The translations under genes and the position numbers were made by a program. From Branchiostoma floridae (taxonomy: Eukaryota; Chordata; Leptocardii; Amphioxiformes; Branchiostomatidae), in NCBI RefSeq assembly GCF_000003815.2, contig NC_049979.1, positions 11,750,471 through 11,814,470 on the forward strand: DNA of 64,000 nt, given 5' to 3'. Shown piece after piece: positions 723 through 61,348 of the stretch. How positions within the stretch are numbered: position 1 is the stretch's first letter; each line of letters starts with the position of its first letter. The notes under the pieces were generated by a model that saw nothing but the letters and a program-made list of their open reading frames with translations, did no database searches and was not told the origin of the DNA.

Positions 723-1888
723 CTAAACTCCTGAATAGACCCCTGATTTTTCCGCCTGCTCTAAGACTGCCTGAAGACTTGTATCAAACAGTTCACATCG
801 GATAGGCATGTCCAGGGCATAGAAGGAGTTCTTCAGGGCGTAGTCTGCGTACAGCTCATGCAGCCTGTGTAGGATGGCTTCCACTCCACCTTGCCGGGGG
901 TCTGTCAGGACAATGAACTTTATACCTGAGGGAAAATACAATGTTTGATAACAAGTCGGGCACATTTGTACACTGAACACTTGTGAAGGTAGGAAACCGT
1001 GTATTTGCAGTACCTGGAAAATGTGTACCCCAATAATGCACATAATATACACATGTAAGTCAAATGCAGATAACGAAATCCTTTGCATATCCTCAACCCC
1101 CGCCCCCCATAGATTCTGTATCTGTATCTACATACTAAGCCTGTGTAACAACAACCCTTTGGGGTAACACACCAACTTTGCAAGCACTTGGCAGGGCAGC
1201 ACCTGGCTATAATACATTAAACCTTTGAATATCTAGTGGTAAATGTTTTTGTAAAGCCATCTTATAAGGATGCTCCTACAGTTCTTTTCACCAGTTTTAT
1301 ATACTGGGGTAAGGCAAAAAATAAGTTTTTGACCACCTCAATTCTGGGTTAATAACTGAAGGCATGACTTGAATACCAGTACGAGATTCTTTCAAGAAAA
1401 CCAACTGGACCTGTGAAGCTGCATGTACCTGTTTGTGTCTGGAAGCAGTGTAGCTTGAAGGCATCCGTCTCCAGTACCTCTATTCCTGACGAGTGTGGCT
1501 CAGGCGACAGCTGCGAGCCGATGGCAAACAGCGAATGGAACATGCTAGCCAGCATGATTCGCTCATTGCTGGAGAGCTTGGGTCTACCGAACTTGATGGA
1601 AATGGGATAGTTGCTGGGATCGTTTAGGACGTCCATCACGTTTCTCTCATTATCAGCTCCCAATTTTGTCCCCGACACGTCCTCTCCATTGATGGCCAAC
1701 AGCGTGTGTCCCACACGGATGCCGTCCCGCTGACCAAATATGACGAGGAGACGCTCGTCCTGCAGCTTCAGCGTGAGTTCCAGCGGGAACCCGAAAGTCT
1801 TCTCCACCTCCGGGCGTGAGGAGGAGTGGTCGTTGTGGTAGATCAGACTCCCCGCCTTGTTAACCACAAACACACTGTAGATCACCAT
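723..1888 (-). CDS. TRAPPC4: TRAPPC4 (synbindin), TRAPP complex subunit 4
   Basis: Core subunit of the TRAPP tethering complex, a Rab1-type GEF acting in ER-to-Golgi and Golgi traffic. Two coding exons on the minus strand, 1888-1429 and 925-723, join in frame (GT at 1428, AG before 925) to give 220 aa; the human protein is 219 aa. The N-terminus [18 protein letters not shown] is the longin-type start of the family. A PDZ-like insertion follows around residues 40-75 ([18 protein letters not shown]). The C-terminal half carries the conserved DPRQGG and MPIRCELFD segments. The ATG has G at -3 and G at +4, a good initiation context. The gene is head-to-head with PIGF, 985 bp between start codons. 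An AATAAA on the minus strand (plus 185-190) lies about 530 bp beyond the stop and probably ends the transcript. Family assignment is very secure; I see nothing broken. Confidence 0.95.
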
Positions 1889-2873
1889 GGCTGAGGTGAG
1901 GCTGAAGGGACTGGCTCAGATGGGTGCCTGTGATGGAACAACATTCATTTAGAAAAAGGGTCAAGGTTATTGACAGGATTTATCAAGAATTTGGGGCACT
2001 ATTGACAAACTGTTCCTGTCAATAAGAATTTTTTGGCATGCAAGGCTTATGGGTCGATCGCTCTGCACTGAGCTTTTGCATTGATTCCTTGATTGGATCA
2101 TTTAACGTTTGATATTCCTGTGAATCAGTGTGATTCCAGTCGATAAAACAGTTTTTTTAACATCCTGTAAATAGCCACTTAACTCATTAACAAGTGAAGA
2201 AGGTTATAGGCTCACTATAAGTGACTACGAAAAGCAACACCTTTATTGCCTCTAGATTACTTAGAAATCCTGTAGTTGTAGGCCATACATGCTTGGTAGC
2301 TGTGATGACTGTTGTATGGCTTCTCTTGATTGCATTTGCAGTCATAATATCAACCCTTGAATCTGTACGACTGCAAACAAGAGTGCACGAGTGATCACCC
2401 CTGAATAATAGAGTGAAAAACAATGATGTCACAAAATTTTCATTCAATAAAAAAACATTAAGGCTTACCTCAGGTAACAGATGCTCTGTGTTATCGTGCA
2501 ATCCGCTGTTTTTGATACCCGCAAACAGGAGGGGAGGGGCGAGGAGACCGAAAGAAGAAAGGCAGGGAGATAGCATCACTACTCAAAGGTTGAAGACTGA
2601 AAAAAGAGAATTTGACGGGCCAAATAGTACAATCTTCATTCATAATGACATCTAATAAATATTTTTTTTATTTTTTATTAAAGAGTTGTGTCTATATATA
2701 TGAGAGAATGAGAAATTAATCTTAACACGTTACTCTATTTTTGCGTTTTGGTTTGTGAAAGGTGAAAGGTCATCAAAATGGCAGCATTTGGCTGAAAATT
2801 TCGTGTTTTGCACCTTTTCACCTTGATTTCCTTGATTTTTGGATCAGATATCAGACAATAACAGCTGTTAGTA
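1889..2873. promoter_or_regulatory. Divergent intergenic region, TRAPPC4 (-) / PIGF (+)
   Basis: This 985-bp region separates two oppositely transcribed housekeeping genes and must contain both 5' UTRs and promoters. Near the PIGF side, around 2774-2784, the sequence CAAAATGGCAGC matches the YY1 consensus (AANATGGCNGC), common near TSSs of housekeeping genes. The ATG inside it opens a five-codon upstream ORF (2778-2795, MAAFG then stop) that would lie in the PIGF leader if transcription starts upstream. No TATA box is evident. The promoter role is inferred from gene layout and the motif, not shown. Confidence 0.5.
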
Positions 2874-5800
2874 ATGAGAATGAGAAACCTCGCTAATCTG
2901 TGTCTCTTAAGAGCGACTGCGTTGCTCTCGCTTTGGTTGCTGTCCACTCTAAGTTCGTGTAGCCTGTTGCAGAAGCCCACGGTGTTTCTCCGTTATTTCT
3001 GTGTGGCCTATGGGGCGGTACAGTTACATGTGTCCGTTGACGTGCAGAAGAAGAACAATGCTACAAACGCAGGAGCTGTGTCAGGAAGGCCTGTGAAGGG
3101 ATGGAAGGTTGGTGCAGGCTTGGTATTTTGGCTTTGATTTTAATATTCAATTTGAAACTTTTGAATTCATTATTTATTGCGGGGAATTAATTTCTCAGTA
3201 GAAGAGGTTTTAGTAGGTTTCACCGGTGTTTCAAGTTTGAAGTAGAAACAATTCTGCATCACAGTGACGTTAAGTACTGTAGCAATACGTCAATTCACCA
3301 TTCCGAGTACGCACATGCGCTGTGACTGTGGCAGGAAGTGTGGGTAATAATATACTAATATATGTATAAGGTTAATAAGGCAATGAGACATGACGTAAAT
3401 CGAGACAATGTTGGGAGACTCGGGACAGAAACTGTACAATTCAGGGGCCTTCACCTTTCATCACCTCTCACATATTGCTTACAAAAAAACATCAAAAAAG
3501 AAGATTATTATTTACGTAAATAAAAGAAGATTGAATCGCATGATAGTTACTATCTAACATTGCTATAATAATCGAAACATTTTTCTTATTCTACAGATTT
3601 CCTCCTTTGTGAAAGGGTTCCTGTTCTTCCTCTTGAGTATCCTGTCATTCCACGTCATCGCAGTGCTGTATGGGGCTCCTCTGCAAGAGTAGGCTCAGAG
3701 AAGATCTGATCTTCATTATTCTTTCTTGGTTATCTGCAATGAATGATTCCTGCATGCTACCAAGCCTGAAAAATTATAGGTTTCTTGATTTTTTGCGTTT
3801 CGTCGCCCTCTGGCGACGAAACGCAATGTATTGGGTTTTACCTTCAGTGGTTGCTTCGATGGTGCTTGGTTTTGGTTCAACGAGACCGCATGCAACTGCT
3901 ACAACTGCTACAACGGAAATACCATTGCATTGTGGTTTCGGACTTCAATATCCTGGAAAATGGCCATATAACATCTATTCCACAAGATTGCACAAGAAAA
4001 AAAAAGATTTTATCAAGAAAGCGACCGAAAATCGACATAAATAATACTATGTAGTGAGGTTAAAGCATAATGTACACTCACATACAGTATATGTGACAAC
4101 TTAGCTCAATCGGTAAAATCCTATGCCTTCAGATCCGAAAGTACCTGGTTCGAAACCGAGAGCGGATATTTTTCTTTTTAAATATTGAAAATAATATATA
4201 AATATTCTACTTATTTATTGATATTGTATTTTTATATATCATTTTTTATTACTTTAGTATTCATTTCATGTATGCAAGACCTTTGTCTTATGAACAGGAC
4301 TTCATAGATTCCAAACCCGGCATTCGAATTTTTCTGTTCATGGTAATGGAAAATACCGTGCAGCGGCTCCTATGCGCGGTAAGATGATTCTCGCAAAACA
4401 CTCGCCACTAAACTACTATTCATGATGTAAACAGAGGCTCTTGATGTTGTTTGCATGAAACTCCATCAAAAACAGCGATCCTTTCTTACAGTAGCAAATG
4501 CTCCATTGTTCAGTATCGACTACACTCACAGACAATACACGTAACAACTTAGCTCAATCGGTCAAGTCATAGGTCATCGGATCCGAAAGTTCCTGGTTCG
4601 AATCCGAGAGTGAATTTTTTTCTTTTTAAATATTGAAGATAATATATAAATATTCTATTTATTTATTTATTGATATTATATTTTTATATATCATTTTTTT
4701 ATTATTTTAGTATTCATTTCATGTATGCAAGACCTTTGTCTTATGAACAGGACTTCATAGATTTCCAACCCGGCATTCGAATTTTTCTGNNNNNNNNNNN
4801 NNNNNNNNNNNNNNNNNNNNNNNNNNNNNNNNNNNNNNNNNNNNNNNNNNNNNNNNNNNNNNNNNNNNNNNNNNNNNNNNNNNNNNNNNCAGAGGCTCTT
4901 GATGTAGTTTGCATGAAACTCCATCAAAAACAGCGATCCTTTCTTACAGTAGCAAATGCTCCATTGTTCAGTATCGAATTCATTCAGAAGTTTTCAGACA
5001 ACACGGATGTAGAAAGTCACACCGCTCGACACAAAAGTATGGAAATTTTCATGAATATTAGCAAAATTATCCAGGAAAACAAGGAAGAAATGTTGTAAAT
5101 GCGGAAACCAGTATAATAGAGATGAGGTAGCTGTTAATTGGTTTGGATATTTGTTTGACATTTGGTAGTCAATTTAGATAGAATCTTGTCACAGTGCTGA
5201 TGGTGCTTTTTCAAGTGTACATAAGTACCTGAGTATATTGATAGATTTTATAATGAACTTATTGTACATTTGAAATAAAGTTGTAAGCCAAGACCAGCTA
5301 ATAAACAGTACTCCTTTCCAAAATAACAATTTTTCTTATAGACGCAACAGCCCTTGAGTGACTTTTTCTAACAGATTTTACTTCAAGAAAAAGACAGTTC
5401 ACACTCATAAACGTAGACGAAACGCCAGCTTTTTTTAAAAGCACTTGTTTCTGCAGTGTCAAAACATTTTCTGTGAATTGTAGAGTGCAGGAGGGTATTG
5501 TCACATCTCCATTTATACTTGTGATACTTATATCAACAGGTTTATCAACAGGACTGCAGCATTTTGTAACTAACGAGTAATGATTTTCACATTTGAATGT
5601 TCATATTTTTGTATTGCAGAGACACAGAAGAAACCTTCTCCTGGGCCCTGCTGATGGCCACCCTGACAGCCCTGCCCTGCTGGTGCATGCTGGGATCACG
5701 GCTGGAAACATGGGTGGCTGTGGTGCTCAATAGGTAAACAAACATAGCTATAAATCTTCTGCTCCAACACCCCCTAATCCTAACAGTTGGCATGCAGGGC

Positions 5801-12962: not shown

Positions 12963-23819
<10,857 letters not shown>

Positions 23820-28193: not shown

Positions 28194-30883
28194 GTAGTGT
28201 TACCCACCAACAAAGTAACGTTACTACCATTTGATATAAACACCACTCCCCTAACAATTTTTCATGACAGTCCAGTTTTCTTTTCTTAAGTACTATCACA
28301 AAACAAAACAAATTGTCCTGGCATCATCTGTTTCGTTGATGAAAAAAAAATTATATAACCCTTTAAAAATGCGTTGTGGTAAACTCATGTTTCTCTAGCT
28401 TTTTCTTGAATACAGGAATAGAATTTTGGCTGTGATACCATGCTTTGTTGCTTCAATTCTGGCTACAAAGTTTATGGTCTCTACTTTCAAATTAAGCTTC
28501 TTGTCTTTGTTCGTCCTATCGCAATAGATTTTAAATCTGCAGGTGATGTCACCCATCCATTTATTTGCTGTGGCCTTATTTTGCCTCGGCTTTATCCTGC
28601 TTAACAATACTGTAACCACTTGTTGTCTGTTATCTAAATAAGGACGTGTCACGTGACGACCGTCTTAAGTGTCAAGTTCCTGTTGTAACAGCACCACGCC
28701 TGGTAAGCCCTTCTCTCCGTGTTTTAGTCACTTTGTGGGTAAAGATCCAGCATGTGTGCTTTCAGAGGCAAACACTTGAGCGTAACAACCGTGTCATGAA
28801 ACTAGAGAACCGCTCAGCAGAAGTAAAACTTTGGCTGGAGGAAGTTTGTAAGGCCGTGCTGAAAGCAGTGTGGAGTCAACAGTAGCGGAAACCTGGCACC
28901 GGTTCTGTCACAAACCAAGGGGCGTGACCACTACCGCGCGCGGCTCGTGTTTACTAACTTCGTTAGGAATCAGTAACATCAGGTTTCAGAACTGCATCTA
29001 GTTCACTGTGTTTGGAATCCTTCATCACCTCAGGTATGTAAAACCTGTCCACGTACGGACTACTTTCAGCTGTAAACCTTCTACTTTGTTATCACAACGG
29101 TAATCAGTTAACTCTGAAATTCAACAAATGAATGTTGTCCCTTTTGGACAACTGATTCAGTCCTAACATCCTGCTCCCTTCGTCAACACTCCATAAATAT
29201 AGCAGATGCCAAGGAAATACAATGAGTAACCTAGAACGGAGGTCACGGTCGCCAAGAAATGAAAAGATCGCTATCTGTGACATGTGTGGCAGCTGTTTGT
29301 TCATATCAAGATAGCGTTCCTTCGTTTTGAATCACACAGGGCCAGCTATTCACCGCTGTCAGTCAGGGGAAGAACTTCGTGTATTCATTCCAAGTGGAAA
29401 CACTGCAGAATACAGTATCAATGGTCTCAGTGTCCTACTAGGGAGTCATGATGAAGAAGCGACATATGTCCTTGGCCTGTCTTCAATCATTCCTGTTGGC
29501 CTGAGTCTGTCCGGGTTCCCCCCAAACATTGGCCCGGCAGGGACAGTGACCTTCCCCGCTTATCATAACATTCCAAACCTGTCTGAAATCCAATAGAGAC
29601 TTTGCGACAAGGATTAATAGCGGCAGGGTATGAAAAATTTTACAGGGAAAATTGAGAAGAAAAGAAGAGAATTCAATGACAAGACTTTGGGTATTACTAG
29701 ATGTTTATTACCTTCATAGACTTGCAGAGGTAACAAAAATGGTGTGATTTAAAAAAACAACAACTTTGTTTTCCATTGAAGTTGGCATGAACAATTGAAT
29801 TTTATACCTATCCATCATGTAACCACTGGTGCACGGCGATGGCAGAAAGCAAGACTAACACAACACTGGATACTTAGCTAAGACTATAAGCATGTACACC
29901 TGTATGACTGCCTTGTCTTCTGTAAACACAAGCAGTCTTGCTCTGATTGGCGGTATTAAAGTCTTAAGAGTTTATAAGGATCATTTTCAGGTAGGCACAA
30001 CTGGAAGTAACACCTTTCTAGTTCTGTTTGTGCAAGTCCTTACCTTGTTTACCAGGTAGATCTGGGGCTTTGTTTATGGCTTCTGAGTCAAGCCCTCAGG
30101 GCTGGTGGTTTGGAATGGTGCCAAGTTATTTGCTGTGGGTCTTCTTAGGGCAGCACCTTCCTATAGTCACTGGTTTGGAGAGTGCAACAGACTTGACTAC
30201 AGCCAAAAGTTTTACATAACACTGGGCATGTGAATGCAAACTTCTGCATTGTCAGACAAACTTAATCTATATGTAGTAAGTACACTTCCCCATGGATCTA
30301 TGTCTAGGATAGGATCAGCTGCCTGGGGCTAATTCCCACGCTGCAGTAGTTCACCTATCTCCACCATTTCAGCTGGGCTTGCTAGATTTTCCCTACCCTG
30401 TTGTTTTGAGAAGATCACTCAACTGGAGAAAGTAGCAACAAGTTTTTGGTAGTTCAGCACAGCCAGGGGTGCTGGCAGGTATTTCTGAAAGCTGATAACT
30501 TCTGCCCATGTTTCAGGGTATGACAATAGAAACCAGGTATGGTTGCACCTGAAATTTACTGCTCTGTCCCTTAGTGTAGAGCTGTGCCTAGACTATACTG
30601 TCAGTCTGTTACTAAAAGTGTGCAGAAATCTTTATATTGAGTCATTGATGTAACATGGATATGATTACACCTTGTCATGCTTGTTTTGGGGCAGTGATGG
30701 CTGTTTTTGTTTTCTGCTTGCCCCCGTTTATGGAACATAGTTGTGTGTCATGATTTACTAACCTGTAGGCTAGGGTATGATAGGGTACAATGAACCACTA
30801 CAGTAAAGGTCATACAGTTTGAAACAAACAGGTGGTCTATGTATTTAGTTACCTTTGATACTACCTTGGTTACAGGTGTAACA
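28194..30883 (+). other. Upstream region / 5' UTR introns of the collagen-like gene
   Basis: A CpG-containing stretch near 28915-28950 followed by a good donor, CAG|GTATGT at 29033/29034, looks like a 5' non-coding first exon. The next plausible acceptor, TTACAG ending at 30875, lies just before the ATG at 30884. The first-exon assignment is inferred from the splice signals only. An open frame at 29327-29596 lacks an ATG and is not called. Confidence 0.35.
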
Positions 30884-33800
30884 ATGGATCCTGGTGGTGT
30901 GCAACCCAGGCCTGATTCCGCCCTCTCTGAAAGATACACGTACATGTCCAAACTCAAGGACAAGCCCAAAGAGATGCCACTCGAGAGCAACCCCCCTACG
31001 TACGAAGAACACGTGAAGCGTCGTACTGATCAGAGCACCCCCTCGCCCACCAACACTTCCCTCTCGCTGGGCCAGGGGGCACCAGAGGGAAGACTTGTGC
31101 TTCAGGATGACCAACAAAACAGGGGTATTGAGAGTGAGGAGGAGGGATACCTGAAGCCCACGAGTTCTAGGAAAACTGCAGCCGTGAAACCTGCTCCTAG
31201 AGTGGACGGAGGGACGCAGATGGAGATGGCTACGCTACAGAATCTTGCCCATGCCAGTAGGCCAGAGTATGGACAGAACCTTGGACAAAATGCTCTGACT
31301 ATTATTCCTGGACAAGATGATATGAGGGCTGGCCAGTTGCAACCTGTTCCCATGGGGCTACTGCTTAGAGACAGACAAGGTGTGCCCAACAGCACACCTG
31401 CTGCATCTGACGGACACCTGGTTCTCCGGCAGCCAGGAGACAGGAGAAGTGTGCAAGGTGTGGAGAATGTAGCCTATCATCAGTACGAGGAGCTGCCCAA
31501 TAGGGAGGTGGACGTGGGGGGTGTGGTCCTGGGGGTGCGAGGACATGGAGGGGGGTCTGACGGGCCACAGGAGTCCCCCTACGCACAGATTGGAGACTTG
31601 GACAGGAGTTCAAAGTAAGTGCATGAAGCTACTTGGTTATGCATAACATTACATACATTTTGTAGTTGAAAACTGATAAGCCATTAGCCAAGGACTTTTA
31701 TAATAATGCTATAATTTAGCCATAATGTATACTGTGCAACTGTATACCTATATCTGCATTTTCACCTTTGAAGTCAACTAAATTTTTATATATGAGCAGA
31801 TTTCTGAGCCATTGAAATTCACTCGTGAATAGACTCAAAATTTTTCAGCGTTGTCTTAAGACTTGGTATGATATGATTAAATTTTACGTTTAATGAATTC
31901 TGCATTTGTTAACCCAACAGGAGAAAGCCCAATCCTCTGTATGTATCAGGCAGACCGGCGCGGCGCAGGAGCATAGAGAAGGGCTCCAATGGTTTGTGCA
32001 GCAGGTGTCAGGACCAGTGGCGAGGCTACCTCATCCCTGCTCTACTGTTCCTCTTCTGTGTGGTGGCCTTGCTGCTGGCCTTGCTCGCCCTCACTAATGC
32101 AGTGTCACACCAAGGTGGGTCTTCAACACGATTTTTGCTTTTTTCAAACCTTAAAGATTTGAAAACTGCATAGTCTAAATATACATACATACATGTAGAT
32201 ACATGTATCACTATTAAAGCTGCATACAATTAAGGATGCTTGTTTTCCAGTTGCATCTAGGGGGAGATGTCAGTGGGCTCTATTGTTGCAGTACCATACT
32301 GGATCTGTCAATTGAATGCTACTTTGATGATATACCTGTTTAACTTATGGGCTATAACATTACATATGCCATATGTAGGAACTTTCAGGTCCTCTGGGAT
32401 TTCATTAGGAGTTCTTAAATTGGGACCCAGCTACTTCATCTGAAATTCTGAGAATAATCTTCATGTTCCTGTTGTAGCAGGTGTCGCTGATCAGGGTGCA
32501 GACCCAGGTAGCACAGCTGCACAGACAGGTGACACCTGGAACACCTCAGTGCTGACCACCCAGCTGGCAGCTGCACTGGACAGGATACAACACCTGGAGA
32601 TACAGGTACATGTGTCTTTGAGACATCAATAATCTTAGTTCTTAAAGTTTATGTTTAATATTGTGGCTTTTCATTGACTTCAAAGTATTTATTTGAATCC
32701 CCAGGCAAACGGTAACCGGTCGTTTCGTTACATCGCCTTTTCGTTACAGTCGATTCGTTACATCACGAAGTCATTTCGTTACACATGGGGAAGTCATTTC
32801 GTTACACATGGGAAGGTCATTTCGTTACACTTGATTATTATCCTATCTTGGTCGCATGTTAAACGCTATAAGTGTTTTCCTGTTATCTTTTCCAGGTTGA
32901 TCTTTCTTGGTTGACATTAGAGACGTGACAGGACACTCAATTTTACGTTTGGTTTTGGTAATTGTTTGTTTTTTATCGTTCGGTTTTCTTCCGTTCCGTG
33001 ATACCAATAGACACATATCATTCATCCCTAACACGTCCCTGTTTCTCATATCTCTCTACTAACACTGTTCAATGTTTCTATATCTTCAAGAAAGGGTATT
33101 CGATTAAGTTTTTACCGGGGAAATGCGAATTTCGGGAAAGTCGGGTAAGTCGGGGAATAATTTGCGGCTCGGCTTAGAAGAACGTTGCTGTAATGTATCT
33201 TGACCCGACTTTGCATTGAATGTTTCATATTTATATTGTCAGAAATACACAACAAGACCATTGTACCATTTGGGTTCCCCACCGACCTTTGTCCTGTATA
33301 CTATTACGGTATTCACTATTACAGTACTACGTACGTGGTGGGAAGGAGGACAATGAACCCTTGCGTCATGCAATGCATGACGGTCTAGCATCAGTTGTCG
33401 ACAAAGGGAAATATTTGTGTGCGTTGTAAGCTGCTTGGTTGTAGGAAATGTACGGAAACATTATATTTTCTCCTTCTAAACTGGCACAAACTGTCCATAG
33501 GTTTCTGTCCATACCATGTAGAAGTAGAAGAACATCTGCTATGTTACAATCACATTTGCCGCACAGGCGTAACCCACGCCAAAACAAGCGGCGCGGGCGC
33601 CATTTTGCATTATATTTAGCGTGAAAGACGGCGCTAAGTTTTAAACTTTCAGCGTAATTTGTGGACACAAGTTGTACACAAGAAGGTGAAGAGTTTATCT
33701 CTCCCATATTTACAGTAGTTCTAACTCAGAACTATGAAACGAACGTCTTATTTTCGGCATGTAAGCGGTGTTGTGTTTGCCACGGTTCTAGTCATGAAAA

Positions 33801-36800
33801 TTCCCCGCTTTATTTATTGTTGTAAACCCATTGCTGTTACAAATTCCATAGCCTTCCTTGTATTTGTAAAGACCAATACGAGTACTCAGGTAATGTATCT
33901 TGACCCGACTTTGCATTGAATGTTTCATATTTATATTGTCAGAAATACACAACAAGGCTATTGTACCATTTGGGTTCCCCATCGACCTTTGTCCTGTATA
34001 CTATTACGGTATTCACTATTACAGTACTACGTACGTGGTGGGAAGGAGGACAATGAACCCTTGCGTCATGCAATGCATGACGGTCTAGCATCAGTTGTTG
34101 GCATAAGAATATATTCGTGTGTGTTGTAGGAAATGTACGGAAACATTATATTTTCTCCGTTTAAACTGGCGCATGGGTAGTGTTTAGTAAGAAAAAAATG
34201 GTAAGGAGAGATATAAGCCTGAATTTTTTTCCTCGAAGGGGTATTGGATATCGGTTTATAGGCATTTTGTCGGCGCCGAACGGACCAGAAGCCAGACTGA
34301 GTACGAAAGTGCGTGCCCGCCGGTCTAATAAACAACAATGGGTTCTTTACTGCGCGCACTGTATATCAACGATACTAAAGGCATCTAATCGTGATTTATT
34401 GTGCACATCACAGCATATATGATAAATGATCAAGTTACTACATAACAGATATATTATGTGTAATCTCTCCTTGGTTCAGATGACCGTTCAAGCCGACATG
34501 CAGCGTGGCCCGTCAGCGCCTCCAGCGCTTAGCGGCGTTCAATATCTGCCGAAAAACAAGAAAAAGAAATTGAATTTTGAGTCCCGGCTTTTTGTTACCA
34601 CGAAAAGTAATAAATTTGTAGTAAGAAGTACTATAACGGCCTGACATTAATCTGTAACGAAATGACTTCGACATGTAACGAAAAGACTTCGTGGTGTAAC
34701 GAAATGACTTCATGGTGTAACGAAATGACTTCATGATGTAACGAAAAGACGTGTAACGAAAAGACCATGTAACGAAACGACCTGTATTCAGGCAAACACG
34801 TTGGTTGGTGATAATTTAGACTATAACAACAGCATTGGAGGTTTCATAGCCTGAGTACCATCCTCCATAGTGACTGCTGGCTTAATCCTTTCACTTGCTA
34901 ACCACGGATTAGCAGGCAAAATGATTTAGCCAATGGTCGCTATGGATAATGGTAATTAGGCTAGCGTTTTAACAGGCGTACACTGTAATCCAACATGGCC
35001 AGAATGACGTCATATGAAAATCCTGTGTATTCTAAATTTGCCACTTGCAAGTTTAGGAAAAAATGATATAGAATGAATGTTTGAAAGGATGTTGGTAAAC
35101 AAAACAGAATTGTGGTAACCGTTACATCTCGTATCTCAAGACTGCTCAAAAGGGTGCTATGACCTACTTTACCTAGCTAAGATGTTATCTTGGCTTGCTT
35201 CCTTGTCTCAGTTCCTTTTTGATTTCCTGTTGTGTTTGCCTCAGTCTGTGTCTATCTGTTTTGTATCAGAACCAACAGCTTGCTGCACAGCTCAGTGTCC
35301 TGGACAACCAGACCATGGTCAGACAAGATGACTTACAAAATCAGGTCAGTAAGAATGAAACAAACTAGAAGTCATGGTCGTGCATGTTAGCATCATGGAT
35401 TCCTGATGTGATGATTCTTCAGAATTTGAACTGTTGCTTTGTCTTGGAGATGTTTCATTGAGATAAGAGGAAATTTTAGACAGGTTTTTATAGCAAAGGT
35501 TCTGACCTTCGTCAGAGACAAACTTACAGCCAAAATACAGAAAAAAAAATGACATATTAACATTGAAGCATCGTCTATAGCACCCTATTGGACATAGTAG
35601 ATCTCACACTAGGTATTGATCATATCTCTGGATTGTAAGACAGACTGGAGGCTAATTCCTAAGTCGAAGATGAAATGAATCAATGGCTTAGATTTTAGTG
35701 TGGGGAAAGGAGTGATGCTGCTGTGCAAATATGGGTGCATATTTTTCAAAATCTAATGAGCCATCTAGATTTCTATTTTTTTCTTGTTTTAATCAAGTTT
35801 TAAAATGCCCATTTCTCTACAGTGTGCAATGTTTTGCCACTACTGGAAGCATGTGCTTCTGCTATAAGTGATGATTGTTGCTACTTTAGCTCCTGTGTTG
35901 ATAGTTCAATCTCTGTTGTGTAGCTGACTGAGCTGGAAAGGAAGCAGAACACGAGCCTCCAAAACTTGTCAAACGCAGTGGGAAGGCAGAACGGAGTGGT
36001 AGAGACACAAACCGTTTCTTCCGATTAACAATGGCCAATGTGAAGGTCACATGTTAAACACTAACATACTAACAGTGTCACTATACTCAACATCATGATA
36101 CACATCTTCATGGTGGACCATACTATCAGCAGTGATGAGGCCACACCAATTACATTTCTTGATTTTGATTTTATGAAGAATTCAAAAAAGGATACATGCT
36201 GTCAAATTTGGTCTCAACAACCATCCAAGGGACTGAAGAAAAATGATGGAGGATGGTTGTTCCAGATACGAAGGTCTTGACTATGTACAACTGGATGGAA
36301 CTTTTTTAATGTAACTTGTGGAAGTGGTTGGATAGCCCTTGAGGTTTTACTGTTGCATTTCAGAAAGGAAATATAGGCAGAATCAATTTATTTCCAGCCA
36401 TTTCCATAACATTTACTTAAAAAGTCTTTGAACCAAATAATTGATGTGGCCTTCCATACTAATCCCCATCCCAGACTAACCTGCCTCATTTCAATGCCCA
36501 TTTCATGAATATACAAACCTCTTCTTTAACCGCCAGCTCCAAGCCACAGTACAGCAGATATCCACAGTGCAGGACACTCTGCAGACAGAACTCAGCCAGC
36601 TGAACTCCAGCGTGATGGCTGAACTGGACACGGTCAGCAAGATGGAGGGTCCGCATGGGTTCAATGGCAGCCAGGGGGCTCAGGTGGGTTAATTTTTTTC
36701 AGAACATTGTCCTGTTGAGATAGTTTTGGTGGTACTGTATTTATAAGGTTGAACAAGTAGCAAACACTGAATGGGGGGAAACTTGTGTTTCAAACTAGAT

Positions 36801-37599: not shown

Positions 37600-37904
37600 C
37601 ATCACCTGTGTCATTGCAAGACAGAAACACTTGATTTACCAAAATATGCCTCTCCAGTTCCAGAGCAGGGTTCAGGGGGCCCAAGCCAAATGGAGCCCAA
37701 TCCTAAACCACTTGTTAATGACATTAAAAGCTATCTACTACTAAGAAAGATGTCCAGGTCCAAAGAAGGAAGTTCTACTGTAGTACCAAGGATAGTGGCC
37801 AGGAAGTCTAAACTTGACCTTGGTCTTCTGAAGACGTACCCACAAACCAAATATCATCATACTCCATCCAGACCACAGATATCCGGAGCAAGACAGACAG
37901 AAAG

Positions 37905-37955
<51 letters not shown>

Positions 37956-39539
37956 AACAATGCCTCCATTTTCCGTGCAAGTCTTTAGAACAGTTGGAAG
38001 AATGCTAACCTCAAATGATCCTTTCAACTTTCTGTTGTATTATTTTGCAGTAAAACAAGTGTCTTTAAAGTTTGAGTACACACTACAATGAAGCATTGAC
38101 TTTGTATATATCAAGAATATTGTAACATTTTATGATTTACAATTATTATTACTTGAATTGCAATATGTAAAAAGATTTCTAGACAGGACAGGCAAAGACA
38201 AACTCTTCCACAACAGATACAATGCATGAGATGTGTTTTTATTAGGTCTTGATGTTTTCTCGCCTGTTTGTTGCCAAGAATTAAAAAAAAATCACTGCTG
38301 GAAAGAGTATTTCATTTGCACAGCTATCAGGGAGAAGTGTTGTTGCATGTTAACTTGGCAGCCTGACTTACAGTTTGATGTCATGGTATATATCATGGTA
38401 TATATCATGCCAAAGAGAAGCTGCAAGCACTGATACCGGTAAACTATGTTCTATCTTACATGTCAGAAACTGGTATGTTCAACTAAATTTCATATCCACA
38501 AACATTTAATGTCAATCTTTCAAACTGCCAAGAGTTGAATTTCTCAGAATATTGTGAAAATATCTGTCCTTAGGGAGATGGTTACAACCATTAAATGTAA
38601 CTCAAGACAGGCTTTATTTGTGCTGTGCTGTTGTAGTCTAGTGAACGACGGACTAGGAAAAGACCTTCCCTGTTTAGATTGAAGAGAATCTGAGAGACAA
38701 ATAGGCTTACACAATAACCATTTCTTTCTGAAAGAATGGCAAATATTAAATAAGAAATCTTCTTCAACATCATAAATAATTGGAATACACTTGTCATTAC
38801 ACATGTAATGTGTGAATGTTTCATAAATTCTCATTTCTGATCCAGCCCTTCTTCCAGACATCTAGTTTATAAACCCGTTGTTTGAAATAAATGTATAAAC
38901 AACTTATAAGCAAACCTAGTGATGGTTTAGCGTAGTATGTCAGACATAAAAAAAATAAGAACAATACATTTTACTGCCCTGGCTCATTGATCACGGTTTT
39001 TGCTAGCTTTTGGTACCAGCTATTTCACAAAGATCTCCTCCTATCTTTTTCCAAAGAAAACAAAAAAGTAACTGTAATTTCCAACCAGAAAACTGGACTC
39101 AACCAAATATTCAACTGTCCAACTCCAGTCTTGTCAAGGAATAAGCAATCCACCACTTCTGTGATAGGAGTTAGACAGTTGAAAATTAGAGTTGGACAGT
39201 CAAAAATTAGAGCAAGTGTTAAAAAGTATATTTTAGCTTTGCTTCAGAATGATTTCTACCAATTCAGATGAACTTTCACCCTAAGTATATGATGCTTTGT
39301 GTCAGAAATTAGATGAAATAAGGTGGTCAGGAATAAGTAGTTAATCTGCACTGGACAGTATGCTTATACAGCTCTGACTGGTGAAATGACTTGTAGACTT
39401 CTCGTGACAAATATTGCCTCAGTGGCACAGCTAACCCATCTGTCTGCTATGTGGAAGCCATGAGAACCTTCTAGAACACTTCCACACTGGTGACAAGGCA
39501 ACAGCTGGCTCTGTATGACTGGCCAGCAGCCAACCGTGA
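37600..39539. other. Convergent 3' region, collagen-like gene and FAM98
   Basis: This stretch lies between the two stop codons and should hold both 3' UTRs. A (CA)n microsatellite occupies 37905-37953. A minus-strand AATAAA (plus 38613-38618) is a candidate FAM98 poly(A) signal and a plus-strand AATAAA at 38886-38891 could serve the collagen-like gene. No supported coding sequence. Confidence 0.45.
37905..37953. repeat. (CA)n microsatellite
   Basis: About 24 uninterrupted CA dinucleotides, about 305 bp downstream of the collagen-like stop codon. Open frames crossing it are artefacts of the repeat. Confidence 0.98.
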
Positions 39540-57944: not shown

Positions 57945-60900
57945 ATGGCTGTGAGCAGTGAGACGCCCTGGAAAAACCAACTTGACCTTGGAAATGCGAG
58001 GAAAACTCCGGACAAAAGCAGAGCAGGTGAAGGGGTGTGTACCCCTCCCCTGCCCCGGCGGTGCCGCCCGCTCGAACACCAAGTCGCCGGGCACCGATAT
58101 GGACAGGGGAAGACTAAGAAAGGTCAGGATAAATTTCTCAGAACAGAACTAACAAGAACACTTGGTCCTTGATTTATAAAGCAAGCACTGAGTACTGGTA
58201 TATTGTAGCAAGGAGGTGCATTTGTTTTCATGATCAGCTTGTATGTAATTATGTTTCTGACTCAGTGTGTCACTTTGGAAGTGTTGCCATACTGACCTCG
58301 CATTTCAAACCGGTCGGGCTGTTTGTGGAAACCAAGCTTATAAGCTTATAAAGTTATATCTGATATAACGTCCTTGTGGAAACGAATAATAGAAATGTAT
58401 ACTTAAAAACATACACAAATGATACCCACGACTATTCCTTTTACGCCTTGTGTATTGGAAGACAACAAACTACACAAGACGTACCATATAATACTTTCCG
58501 TTCCCGAAAGCTGCCCGACCGGACCCGGTTTGGGAATGTGGCCAAACGGGTGAAGTCTGTCATCTCCCAAATCCTTGTTCTGAGATTCTCTCATTGTGTC
58601 AAGTCCAAATTTCAGACCGTCACTGATACAGATTTACAGACTTTAAAAAAAAAATAGGAATAGTCTTACCACAGCATTTCAAGACGTTGAAAGTTACTTT
58701 AATGTACATTCTGTACTTTATGTATCTTTCAGTGGCACGAATTCATGCCCAGGTCTGGACACACCTAGATATCGTTATAGACAACACTTGTATTGTCCTT
58801 TCGGAGTGGGGCGTAAATGAGGGGGGTGTGTGTATGAAGGAGCTTGACAGTTGGCCTCAAGAGTGAAACCACTTCGACTAAAAGAACTCAACACTGTTAT
58901 ACAGAAGTAGGAAGGACCTGATGTGCTAAGCGAGATGCATTTGCACTACCACTACCTACTTGTACATGTACTTGAAAAAGCATCATGGATCATGCTTAGA
59001 GGATGACTGCTTGACTTTCGCCTTTTTTCATTTTCCAGGCATGTTACAACACGATGATGGGACAGTACTGAAGGCCCTCCAGCCGCCGCCCCTTGGGCAG
59101 AGAGAACTCGGGTTCTACCAGAAGATTTTTCAGGAGGAGAGCACCAACAGTCAGGACCTTCTCACCTTGAGACAGTTCATGCCAAAGTACCTGGGCAAGT
59201 TCGTTCCTGAGGACGACCAATCACGTATCCTTTCGTCAGGTTGATAGTTACGTAACGAATAAAGGAAACATTACCTGTTGTTATTGTTGACCTAGTCTGT
59301 GTAACACAAACTCCGCTGTCCAGGGCTGTAACTGGCCCCTTCTAGGGGGCCGGCGGATGTTTGGCGGGCTGCTATAAGCCAGATTTAATCAGGCTAGTTG
59401 TTGACCTTAACCTTACGCAGAGGTTTTTATCAGGCTGGAGGACATCACCAGAAAGTTCCGCCAGCCCTGTATTCTGGATGTCAAGGTGAACGATAGAGAT
59501 CCGAATTGAAAGAAGAATCTAAATAAAGATTTCAGGACAAATACACATTCTAAGCGTAATATAAGCATTATGCAGTTTTGCGAGCTGTGCAACTTTCGTT
59601 TGAGGCTCTGAAACATGCAGTGGCACATCAAGCCTGCATCATTGGTGGATTGCAGTTTATCTTGTTCATTTTACTTTTATACCATGAGAAGAGAATGATG
59701 GGATGATACATCTAGCATTAAAAGTTTAGTAGCGATGGCACTGACAAGAGCATGTCAGTAATACAACAGTGTATCTACTAAGACCAAGGATGTAACGTCC
59801 TTGCTAAGACTAAGTGAGAGGCACACTGATGACTTTATTTTCTCGTGTCAAAACTCAGGTGGGAAGAAGAAGACGCCCTGATTTTAACCCCAAGCGAGAG
59901 AAGACGAGATATCCACCTCTTGACCTTCTGGGGTTTCAACTAATGGGAATGAGGGTAGGTCCTGTCTCAGATTAACATGAAAATTCTGTTGACAATTGCT
60001 GACCCTTTTTCCCACCTTCCATTTGTCTTTGTCCTAGTGTAGGGCGGTAAGAAGAGTATGAACTGAGCGAAGTTCTGGGGAGTGGGTTCGAATTTGCGTA
60101 GGAGAATGTGGTTGGACAAAAAACTAGCAAGCCTTCCCTTTAGCTAAAAATCTCGCCACTGCAACAGATGAAAGAAAACTTACTAAGCACGATAAAGAAA
60201 CCACATCAAGCTATTCGTCTGATCTAAAAAGACTGGAATATACAAAAACTTTTACAGTAATCTAACTGGTTTTATTTTACAGATCTATAAGAGGAAAACA
60301 GGTGAGGTGGCGTGCTATGACAAGGAATACGGGAGAAGCCTTGATGAAAACCATGTCGGCATTGGTGAGAAAATTACTTTTTGTGCATTATCACTTTATG
60401 TTTGTTTGATTTACTGTTGAAAGAGACTATTGACAACAATATATGAAATATGAATATGACGTTGTTGTAACCTGATTTCCATTCTGCTTCTTTTGAGAAG
60501 AAGGGAAATAATTTGGTTCCATACGAGACAAGTTCAGAATGATGTTCGTTTCTTATCACAATCGTAACCATTTCTTTATTCCTACAGGTCTGACTAAATA
60601 CCTGACCATGGACGGGACCTGTCCGCTGCAAGTCCGAGTGTTACAGGCCATCTTGTGTCGTCTGGATAAAATCAAACAGTTCATCAAGACTCAGTCTCAG
60701 ATCTGCCTCTTCTCAAGCTCTCTCCTCATCGTTTACGAGGGAGAGCCAGAGAAAGCCATAGAGAAACCCACATTCAACTCCCCTAAGAACAGCACAGAAT
60801 ACTCCACACATAAACTCCTAACAGGCACCAGCCGTTCGTTGTGCTCAGTCACTCTAGCAAGTGATAACGTATCTTTCAGTGATCAAACGCACCACTTGTC

Positions 60901-61348
60901 TAATTCTGAGGTATCACATTCCAAGGGAGATAAAAATGTTGCAGACGTTTCTAGAGAACGAGTTTTGGTACCGAGACTAGGGCAAATTCTGTCACAAGAT
61001 ATCTTTGGTTCGGTGCAGGAGGTGGCAAAGGCAAAGGCAAAGAGTGTCAACGGATCACATACACACGAGTCCAGTCAAGGGGTTAATGGCAATCCAAAGT
61101 CACTCGAACAAGCTTTCACAGCCACAGGTCACTCAGGTTCACCGAGAGACATGGCTTATAGATCAACACCGGTAGAGGATGGGTTATCCCGTCCAATCAG
61201 GAATGGTGAGACAGACTGTATATCTCAGGCTATGATAGATGTGAGAATGATTGACTTTGCCCACGTGTATCCGTCGGACCATATTGATGAGAACTACCTT
61301 TATGGTATAAAGAACTTGATAAGCTATCTAGAAAAGATAGCTTCGTGA
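57945..61348 (+). CDS. IPMK: Inositol polyphosphate multikinase (IPMK)
   Basis: Phosphorylates inositol phosphates (IP3 to IP5) and PIP2, mainly in the nucleus. Six exons, 57945-58122, 59039-59224, 59421-59485, 59859-59954, 60283-60364 and 60588-61348, splice in frame to 455 aa (human 416). The substrate-binding PxxxDxKxG motif is present as PCILDVKVG (P137, D141, K143, G145), split by the exon 3/4 junction. The SSLL catalytic motif is SSSLLIVYEG (about 245-254) and the IDF motif is MIDFAHVYPSD (D425). The N-terminal EHQVAGHRYGQGK is characteristic of IPMK rather than IP6K or IP3K. The last exon carries about 160 disordered Ser/His/Gly-rich residues between SSLL and IDF, longer than in human. 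An AATAAA at 61409-61414 is 61 bp after the stop. Confidence 0.94.

What the first reader, a model, noticed from the sequence alone, without database searches (positions are those of the whole stretch)
32702..34797. Foldback-like transposon with arrays of TTTCGTTAC as inverted termini and a 9-bp target duplication
Both flanks carry CAGGCAAAC, and each end is an array of short TTTCGTTACA units in opposite orientation (six left, seven right). Foldback elements have such tandem-built inverted repeats. The 8-9-bp duplication suggests hAT-, Merlin- or Mutator-type mobilisation. The arrays may be transposase-binding clusters. I do not recognise this family.
Basis: seen in the sequence. Interest (0 to 1): 0.72.

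Follow-up and report, generated by a model that had tools for sequence, protein, structure and literature searches.

The report
Non-autonomous MULE transposon with repeat-array ends
This is a jumping gene that has lost its own engine, one of a few dozen copies in what looks like a lancelet genome, and a longer relative still carries the Mutator-type enzyme that probably moves them.

Summary
The window carries a unit transposon at 32711-34789 (2079 bp). Its inverted termini are arrays of TTTCGTTACA, six left and seven right. The target duplication is 8 bp (AGGCAAAC), not 9: C34789 is the element's own last base in all 19 two-ended copies compared. The host assembly holds at least 28 left ends. 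All 19 copies share their outermost 11 bases and have exact 8-bp (12) or 9-bp (7) duplications; 340 mismatched flank pairings never reach 4 bp.

A 5378-bp copy (L028) between the same termini has an open 542-aa frame with a Pfam MULE transposase domain (E 2.7e-12). Four copies at four sites, the window's included, share the same junction where the transposase gene is missing, so they spread after losing it. This is a non-autonomous Mutator-like element with foldback-type ends, close in design to Muta1 and Tm1. hAT and Merlin are not supported.

It is a new member of a known kind. A 2019 survey could not find MULE transposases in Branchiostoma floridae, which this genome resembles. Movement, transposase binding and an empty site were not shown.

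The parts
32711..34789 (.). Complete non-autonomous MULE copy, 2079 bp
   Evidence: Same first 11 and last 11 bases in 19 of 19 two-ended copies; closest copy L009 with 25 substitutions in 2051 aligned bases, gaps left out
32703..32710 (.). Left target-site duplication AGGCAAAC (8 bp)
   Evidence: Exact match to 34790-34797
34790..34797 (.). Right target-site duplication AGGCAAAC (8 bp)
   Evidence: Exact match to 32703-32710
32711..32722 (+). Left terminal 12-mer GGTAACCGGTCG
   Evidence: 1 difference in 192 cells over 16 other copies (L017 and L023 dropped); 18 of 19 copies identical
34778..34789 (-). Right terminal 12-mer GAATACAGGTCG (read inward), different from the left one
   Evidence: 1 difference in 192 cells over 16 other copies (L017 and L023 dropped); 18 of 19 copies identical
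32723..32829 (+). Left array: six TTTCGTTACA units (one ATTCGTTACA), start-to-start 16, 14, 21, 23, 23 bp
34653..34777 (-). Right array: seven TTTCGTTACA units, start-to-start from the outside 16, 15, 21, 21, 21, 21 bp
33174..33174 (.). Junction where the longer copy L019 carries about 3.65 kb more, including the transposase gene
   Evidence: Element 1-464 aligns to L019 1-464 and 464-1005 to L019 4111-4669; L009, L010 and L015 share the junction
33190..33488 (.). Internal direct repeat, first copy, with the palindrome CGTCATGCAATGCATGACG
   Evidence: 90.3% to 33890-34173 (one search gives it in two ungapped pieces of 95 and 94%)
33890..34173 (.). Internal direct repeat, second copy
33532..33889 (.). 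Segment also found inside a separate, longer dispersed repeat; probably captured
   Evidence: 352-358 bp best match at 85-87% in each of 7 such loci examined (L035-L041, chosen because they match only here); L037 stays alike to 5 of the other 6 over 940 bp or more

Best explanation
The finding is a non-autonomous copy of a Mutator-like (MULE) DNA transposon family with composite, foldback-type ends. Shown: a 12-bp terminal motif that differs between the two ends, then 6-7 copies of TTTCGTTACA; exact 8-9-bp target duplications in every two-ended copy compared; a longer copy with an open MULE transposase frame between the same ends; and four copies at different sites with the same junction where the transposase gene is missing. 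Inferred: the transposase is made from a two-exon message, binds the TTTCGTTACA units through its N-terminal zinc fingers (FLYWCH and PHD-like), pairs the two ends, cuts beside the terminal motifs and inserts at a staggered cut that leaves 8 or 9 bp duplicated. Because the deletion is shared by copies at different sites, this branch of the family was moved in trans by transposase from other copies. The 1.2% difference from its nearest copy points to recent spread.
For: 19 of 19 two-ended copies (window plus 18 of the 29 other family loci examined) have exact 8- or 9-bp duplications at the same boundaries; 0 of 340 mismatched flank pairings reach 4 bp. L028 frame: Pfam MULE E 2.7e-12, 47.4 bits against a cut-off of 27.6; L019 E 1.6e-12. 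FLYWCH 23.6 bits, exactly at its cut-off, when that segment of L028 is searched alone. Exon 1 with ATG and a CAG|GTAGGC donor, and a TTTAAG|GT acceptor, conserved in L019. The long frame is alignable throughout with that of a second MULE family at about 40% identity; which residues are the catalytic D, D and E I judge from recalled motifs only. Element 1-464, 464-1005 and 1496-2079 are 96, 94 and 92% identical to L019; the junction 464|4111 is shared by the window copy, L009, L010 and L015. With 17 copies the core differs in 4 of 800 cells on each side and the spacers in 59 and 66 of 608, gaps counted as differences.
Against: No movement, transcript or binding was observed, and no empty site could be tested. 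Ten of the 29 other family loci examined lack one visible end and one lacks both, so the two-ended set is selected. Of the four copies over 4 kb, only L028 has one long transposase frame: L019 is broken into 422- and 136-aa frames, L016 shows only a 45-aa remnant and L012 is largely N inside. FLYWCH in the whole L028 protein was not listed at E 0.1, and in the whole L019 frame it scored 16.5 against 23.6; the PHD-like finger scores just under its cut-off (22.2 against 24). L028 belongs to a more distant subfamily (in-register pieces 81-94% to the window), so the enzyme that moved this copy may have been a closer one. Core conservation comes from related copies, not independent ones; with all 19 copies the contrast is smaller (core 12 and 5 of 900, all other positions 78 and 78 of 900).
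Confidence: 0.93

Rival explanations
1. A hAT, Merlin or P-type element whose 8-bp duplication only resembles a MULE's, or a foldback element with its own unknown transposase.
For: 8-bp duplications also occur in hAT and P elements (recalled); Galileo, a foldback-like element, is P-type (PMC3573991, start of abstract in the search listing).
Against: The only transposase domain above its Pfam cut-off between these termini is MULE; the other listed hit, DDE_Tnp_ISL3, is under its cut-off (13.6 and 16 against 23); no hAT, P or Merlin domain was listed for L028 or L019 at E 0.1. 7 of 19 copies have 9-bp duplications.
Confidence: 0.03
2. The arrays are by-products of slippage or fold-back conversion and not transposase-binding sites; only the terminal 12-mers matter for movement.
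For: Unit number varies (5-7 left, 5-8 right within the outer 175 bp of 19 copies), and L023 shows a local gain of units.
Against: The first two units start at element positions 13 and 29 in 38 of 38 arms, and the core is much less variable than the spacers. Conversion alone should even out cores and spacers alike (inference).
Confidence: 0.15
3. A chance inverted array or a satellite without transposon boundaries.
For: None after the copies were collected.
Against: 28 left ends among 40 scored matches; 19 of 19 two-ended copies with exact duplications.
Confidence: 0.01

Closest known systems
Muta1, active MULE of Aedes aegypti (PMC5225508; passages, sections 7 and 12 seen)
   Same: 8 or 9-bp duplications; TIR made of a short terminal motif plus 9 copies of a 12-bp unit; two-exon MULE transposase; many non-autonomous derivatives with varied interiors and unit numbers; called a type 2 foldback TE there
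   Different: Unit sequence, length and spacing differ; the Muta1 terminal motif is a 10-bp imperfect palindrome; Muta1 was shown to move in yeast, this one was not; no sequence comparison was made
Tm1 Mutator/Foldback family of root-knot nematodes (PMC3169594; passages seen)
   Same: Composite TIR with an internal tandem motif, mostly 9-bp duplications, asymmetric short terminal motifs at the two ends, transposase-bearing and MITE-like members
   Different: Tm1's unit is about 14 bp and its 7-bp terminal motifs lie outside the inverted repeat; host differs; sequences were not compared
Tetris, foldback of Drosophila virilis (PMC4079207; passages seen)
   Same: Foldback-like non-autonomous element with 8-10-bp duplications, assigned to Mutator by its authors
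   Different: No transposase copy was found for Tetris; here one was
Phantom (Marquez and Pritham 2010; not held, known here only through PMC6446971 and PMC4079207)
   Same: Animal MULEs, FLYWCH in some, 8-10-bp duplications (PMC6446971 table 1)
   Different: Placement by phylogeny not tested; a PHD-like finger is not listed for Phantom in that table
Rehavkus (PMC6446971 table 1)
   Same: PHD finger, TIRs of 26-400 bp, 9-bp duplications
   Different: Listed there as outgroup; no reference sequence was compared here; a FLYWCH finger is not listed

Membership tests
MULE (Mutator-like element) superfamily | DDE transposase of the MULE type encoded between the same termini | tested here: met
   L028 frame, Pfam MULE E 2.7e-12 above its cut-off; L019 1.6e-12. 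In the window copy none of 10 interior frames scanned matched.
MULE (Mutator-like element) superfamily | 8-11-bp target-site duplication (range as given in PMC6446971) | tested here: met
   8 bp in 12 and 9 bp in 7 of 19 two-ended copies
MULE (Mutator-like element) superfamily | Long terminal inverted repeats | tested here: met
   117 columns at 84.6%; some MULEs lack TIRs (PMC6446971)
MULE (Mutator-like element) superfamily | Demonstrated cut-and-paste movement | not testable with these tools
   No assay; the empty-site searches did not complete
Foldback-type element (structural class) | Inverted termini built of tandem short repeats | tested here: met
   6 and 7 units, opposite orientation; the arrays are short compared with classical Drosophila FB (recalled)
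Phantom clade of MULEs | Transposase grouping with Phantom in a tree | not tested
   No reference transposases were at hand
Phantom clade of MULEs | FLYWCH finger (present in some members) | tested here: inconclusive
   L028 segment alone 23.6 bits at cut-off 23.6; L019 segment 21.6, below; whole L028 frame not listed, whole L019 frame 16.5
Rehavkus | PHD finger in a Rehavkus-type transposase | tested here: inconclusive
   PHD-like finger just under cut-off, 22.2 against 24; transposase not compared with Rehavkus
hAT | hAT transposase or dimerisation domain between the termini | tested here: not met
   Not listed for L028 or L019 in Pfam at E 0.1
Merlin | Merlin-type transposase domain between the termini | tested here: not met
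   Not listed for L028 or L019 in Pfam at E 0.1

The most novel reading that the evidence does not exclude
These MULEs have two functionally different ends. In this family and in a second one whose transposase is about 40% identical, one end begins GG(T/A)A and the other GAAT, both closing in GG(T/A)CG, and an array follows that in this family starts about one and a half helical turns apart and settles near two turns (20-23 bp). The transposase would assemble an ordered, asymmetric synapse along a helically phased array, and both families would be recently or currently mobile in a cephalochordate, where a 2019 survey could not find MULE transposases.
Probability: 0.3. Interest if true: 0.55.

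Novelty: new member of a known kind. Interest (0 to 1): 0.42.

Why it matters
If the host is Branchiostoma floridae or a near relative, this supplies what a 2019 survey of MULEs said it could not detect there: open MULE transposase frames between defined ends (two families), with a recently spread non-autonomous branch around one of them. That survey accepted only one chordate MULE sequence, from the tunicate Ciona savignyi, and doubted an earlier report for B. floridae, so the question of MULEs in chordates becomes directly testable. The copies also form a natural set of end variants for asking how MULE transposases read tandem-array termini.

Tried and rejected
Coding content of the window copy: 10 interior frames (of 45 frames of at least 30 aa overlapping it) gave no Pfam match above cut-off; two weak ones were listed, DUF4637 at 19 against 27 bits and DUF6727 at 13.2 against 22.3. 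No Rfam match at gathering score in 31000-36500. No PDB relative of the L028 transposase at E 1. In viral contigs 3 stretches matched a peptide pattern and none was a relative by tblastn. No NCBIfam match at E 0.1. A text search for the 10-mer gave 15 papers, none on transposons by title.

Rejected: hAT, Merlin and P (no such domain listed); a 9-bp duplication at this site. L046 and L047 first looked like giant transposase frames of 1748 and 1905 aa; the loci hold 756 and 859 N, so the lengths are gap artefacts. At first I read the window copy as having gained 490 bp over L019; since the best match of 33532-33889 runs unbroken in each of the 7 separate repeat loci compared, L019 more likely lost it.

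Not settled: the empty-site test, and exact pattern counts of the termini.
Full report
What is in the window. The repeats are real. TTTCGTTACA occurs six times near 32.7 kb (once as ATTCGTTACA) and seven times near 34.7 kb in the opposite orientation, with no other exact match in 64 kb. The arms align at 84.6% over 117 columns, with start-to-start spacings, from the outside, of 16, 14, 21, 23, 23 on the left and 16, 15, 21, 21, 21, 21 on the right.

Copies in the host genome. The host assembly has 513,431,437 bases in 431 contigs; the full-length search scored 40 of 228 candidates and gave 122 matches, so counts are lower bounds. A search with the left end alone scored 40 of 54 candidates, and 28 of the 40 matches were left ends, the other 12 right ends. 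I examined 29 other family loci (26): 18 have both ends, 9 a left end only, 1 a right end only and 1 neither. L013, left end only, has 1251 N. In the one-ended loci a second end was sought by exact pattern in the stretch held, so diverged or distant ends could be missed.

Boundaries. In all 19 two-ended copies (window included) the first 11 bases are GGTAACCGGTC and the last 11, read inward, GAATACAGGTC. This moves the right boundary of the window copy by one base, to 34789, and makes its duplication 8 bp. Over the 19 copies the duplication is 8 bp in 12 and 9 bp in 7; when left and right flanks of different copies are paired, 0 of 340 pairs match over 4 bp or more. L014 and L017 share one duplication, and their flanks with the element ends are 99.4-99.6% identical, so the 19 copies stand for 18 insertion sites. 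By eye the duplications show no target preference; this was not tested.

The enzyme. Two copies are over 5 kb. L028 (5378 bp) has a 542-aa open frame with a Pfam MULE domain (E 2.7e-12); L019 (5270 bp) has the same domain (E 1.6e-12) in a frame broken into 422 and 136 aa. Two others are over 4 kb: L016 holds a 45-aa remnant only, and L012 is largely N inside. Upstream, L028 and L019 both have a short exon starting with ATG and ending at a CAG|GT donor, and an acceptor before the long frame. The joined start reads as a PHD-like finger (22.2 bits, cut-off 24), and the following segment as FLYWCH (23.6 bits, at cut-off, in L028; 21.6 in L019). FLYWCH was weaker or absent when whole frames were scanned. 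In the genome the L028 protein has 93 matches from 80 scored of 181 candidates; all but the three rows of L028 and L019 are at 76% identity or less.

How the window copy arose. Its positions 1-464, 464-1005 and 1496-2079 match L019 1-464, 4111-4669 and 4669-5270 at 96, 94 and 92%. It therefore lacks about 3.65 kb including the transposase gene. The junction 464|4111 is shared by the window copy, L009, L010 and L015, which sit at four sites with four different duplications. So the deletion came first and these copies moved afterwards, which needs transposase from elsewhere. Other copies show other junctions (L018, L014, L012). The segment 33532-33889 also lies inside a separate dispersed repeat: each of 7 such loci examined matches it at 85-87%, and one of them stays alike to 5 of the other 6 over 940 bp or more. 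I infer capture of that segment by an ancestor and later loss of part of it from L019. The internal direct repeats (90%) lie on both sides of it. The nearest copy, L009, differs by 25 substitutions in 2051 aligned bases, which suggests recent spread.

Function of the arrays. In 17 copies (L017 and L023 dropped) the outer 100 bases show 4 differences in 800 core cells on each side, 1 in 192 for each terminal 12-mer, and 59 and 66 in 608 spacer cells, gaps counted as differences from the window copy. With all 19 copies the core differs in 12 and 5 of 900 cells against 78 and 78 of 900 elsewhere, terminal motif included. The copies are related, so these are not independent events. The first two units begin at positions 13 and 29 in 38 of 38 arms. 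The simplest reading is selection on the core as a binding site, phased on the helix; binding was not tested.

A second family. Two of the best distant matches of the transposase (L044 and L045, about 40% identity, re-fetched as L054 and L055) lie in elements with inverted repeats of about 350 bp, exact duplications of 9 and 10 bp, and an outer array of a different unit with a period of 21-23 bp. Their terminal 12-mers, GGAAGCAGGACG and GAATGTCGGACG, mirror GGTAACCGGTCG and GAATACAGGTCG. The gene reads away from the GAAT end in the first family and away from the GG end in the second (from the coordinates). Two families are too few to claim a rule. I looked for inverted repeats at four more distant matches (L056, L057, L058, L062) and found no such clear termini there; L057, L058 and L062 hold N.

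Host. Lengths were seen for 18 of contigs C1-C19, from 35.3 to 17.1 Mb; C6 and C20 were not seen. I recall 513 Mb and 19 chromosomes for Branchiostoma floridae; 19 chromosomes are stated in PMC12373286 (passages), the size is from recall only. B. lanceolatum also has 19 (abstract in listing). The species is not proven. The copy probably sits in an intron: an exon-like frame ends at 32605 before GTACATG, and a coiled-coil-like frame resumes near 35.27 kb. Those frames were not scanned; the neighbouring frames at 30794-31615 and 37600-38088 had no Pfam match.

Comparison with print. Muta1 (PMC5225508) and Tm1 (PMC3169594) have the same design, and Tetris (PMC4079207) is a foldback assigned to Mutator on its duplications. 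PMC6446971 reports that its authors could not find MULE transposases in the B. floridae sequences of an earlier report or in their own searches, and accepts one chordate sequence, from Ciona savignyi (section 6). The earlier report (Marquez and Pritham 2010, as I understand the citation) is not held here, and Repbase was not searchable, so a deposited relative may exist. My paper searches found no description of this family in what they listed: 1 paper; 3; 2 listed of 3; 6; 20 listed of 1,572, so weak.

Verdict. A non-autonomous MULE with foldback-type ends: a new member of a known kind, well supported in structure, untested in action.

Noticed in passing
L054:1346-5330 and L055:1993-6234: Second MULE family with an open 590-aa frame (L054) and similar asymmetric terminal 12-mers; duplications of 9 and 10 bp.
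   Followed up: partly
window 4073-4336 / 4521-4789 and 4432-4528 / 4890-4986: Local direct duplication of 90-96% identity beside the window's 100 N; may be an assembly artefact.
   Followed up: no
window 21435-21553 / 36202-36319: Inverted pair of a repeat, 75% identical over 126 columns.
   Followed up: no
L014 and L017 (C10, about 435 kb apart, opposite orientation): Same insertion site with flanks over 99% identical but different interiors (L017 holds N): an inverted duplication or an unmerged haplotype.
   Followed up: partly
L015 flanks: About 80 bp of the left flank recurs in the right flank, as if the element sat between tandem copies of a segment (read).
   Followed up: no
window 33364-33382 and 34064-34082: 19-bp palindrome CGTCATGCAATGCATGACG in both internal direct repeats.
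   Followed up: no
window 1349-1915 (-) and 60512-61348 (+): TRAPPC4-like coding frame and a frame matching inositol polyphosphate kinases, near the edges of the window.
   Followed up: partly
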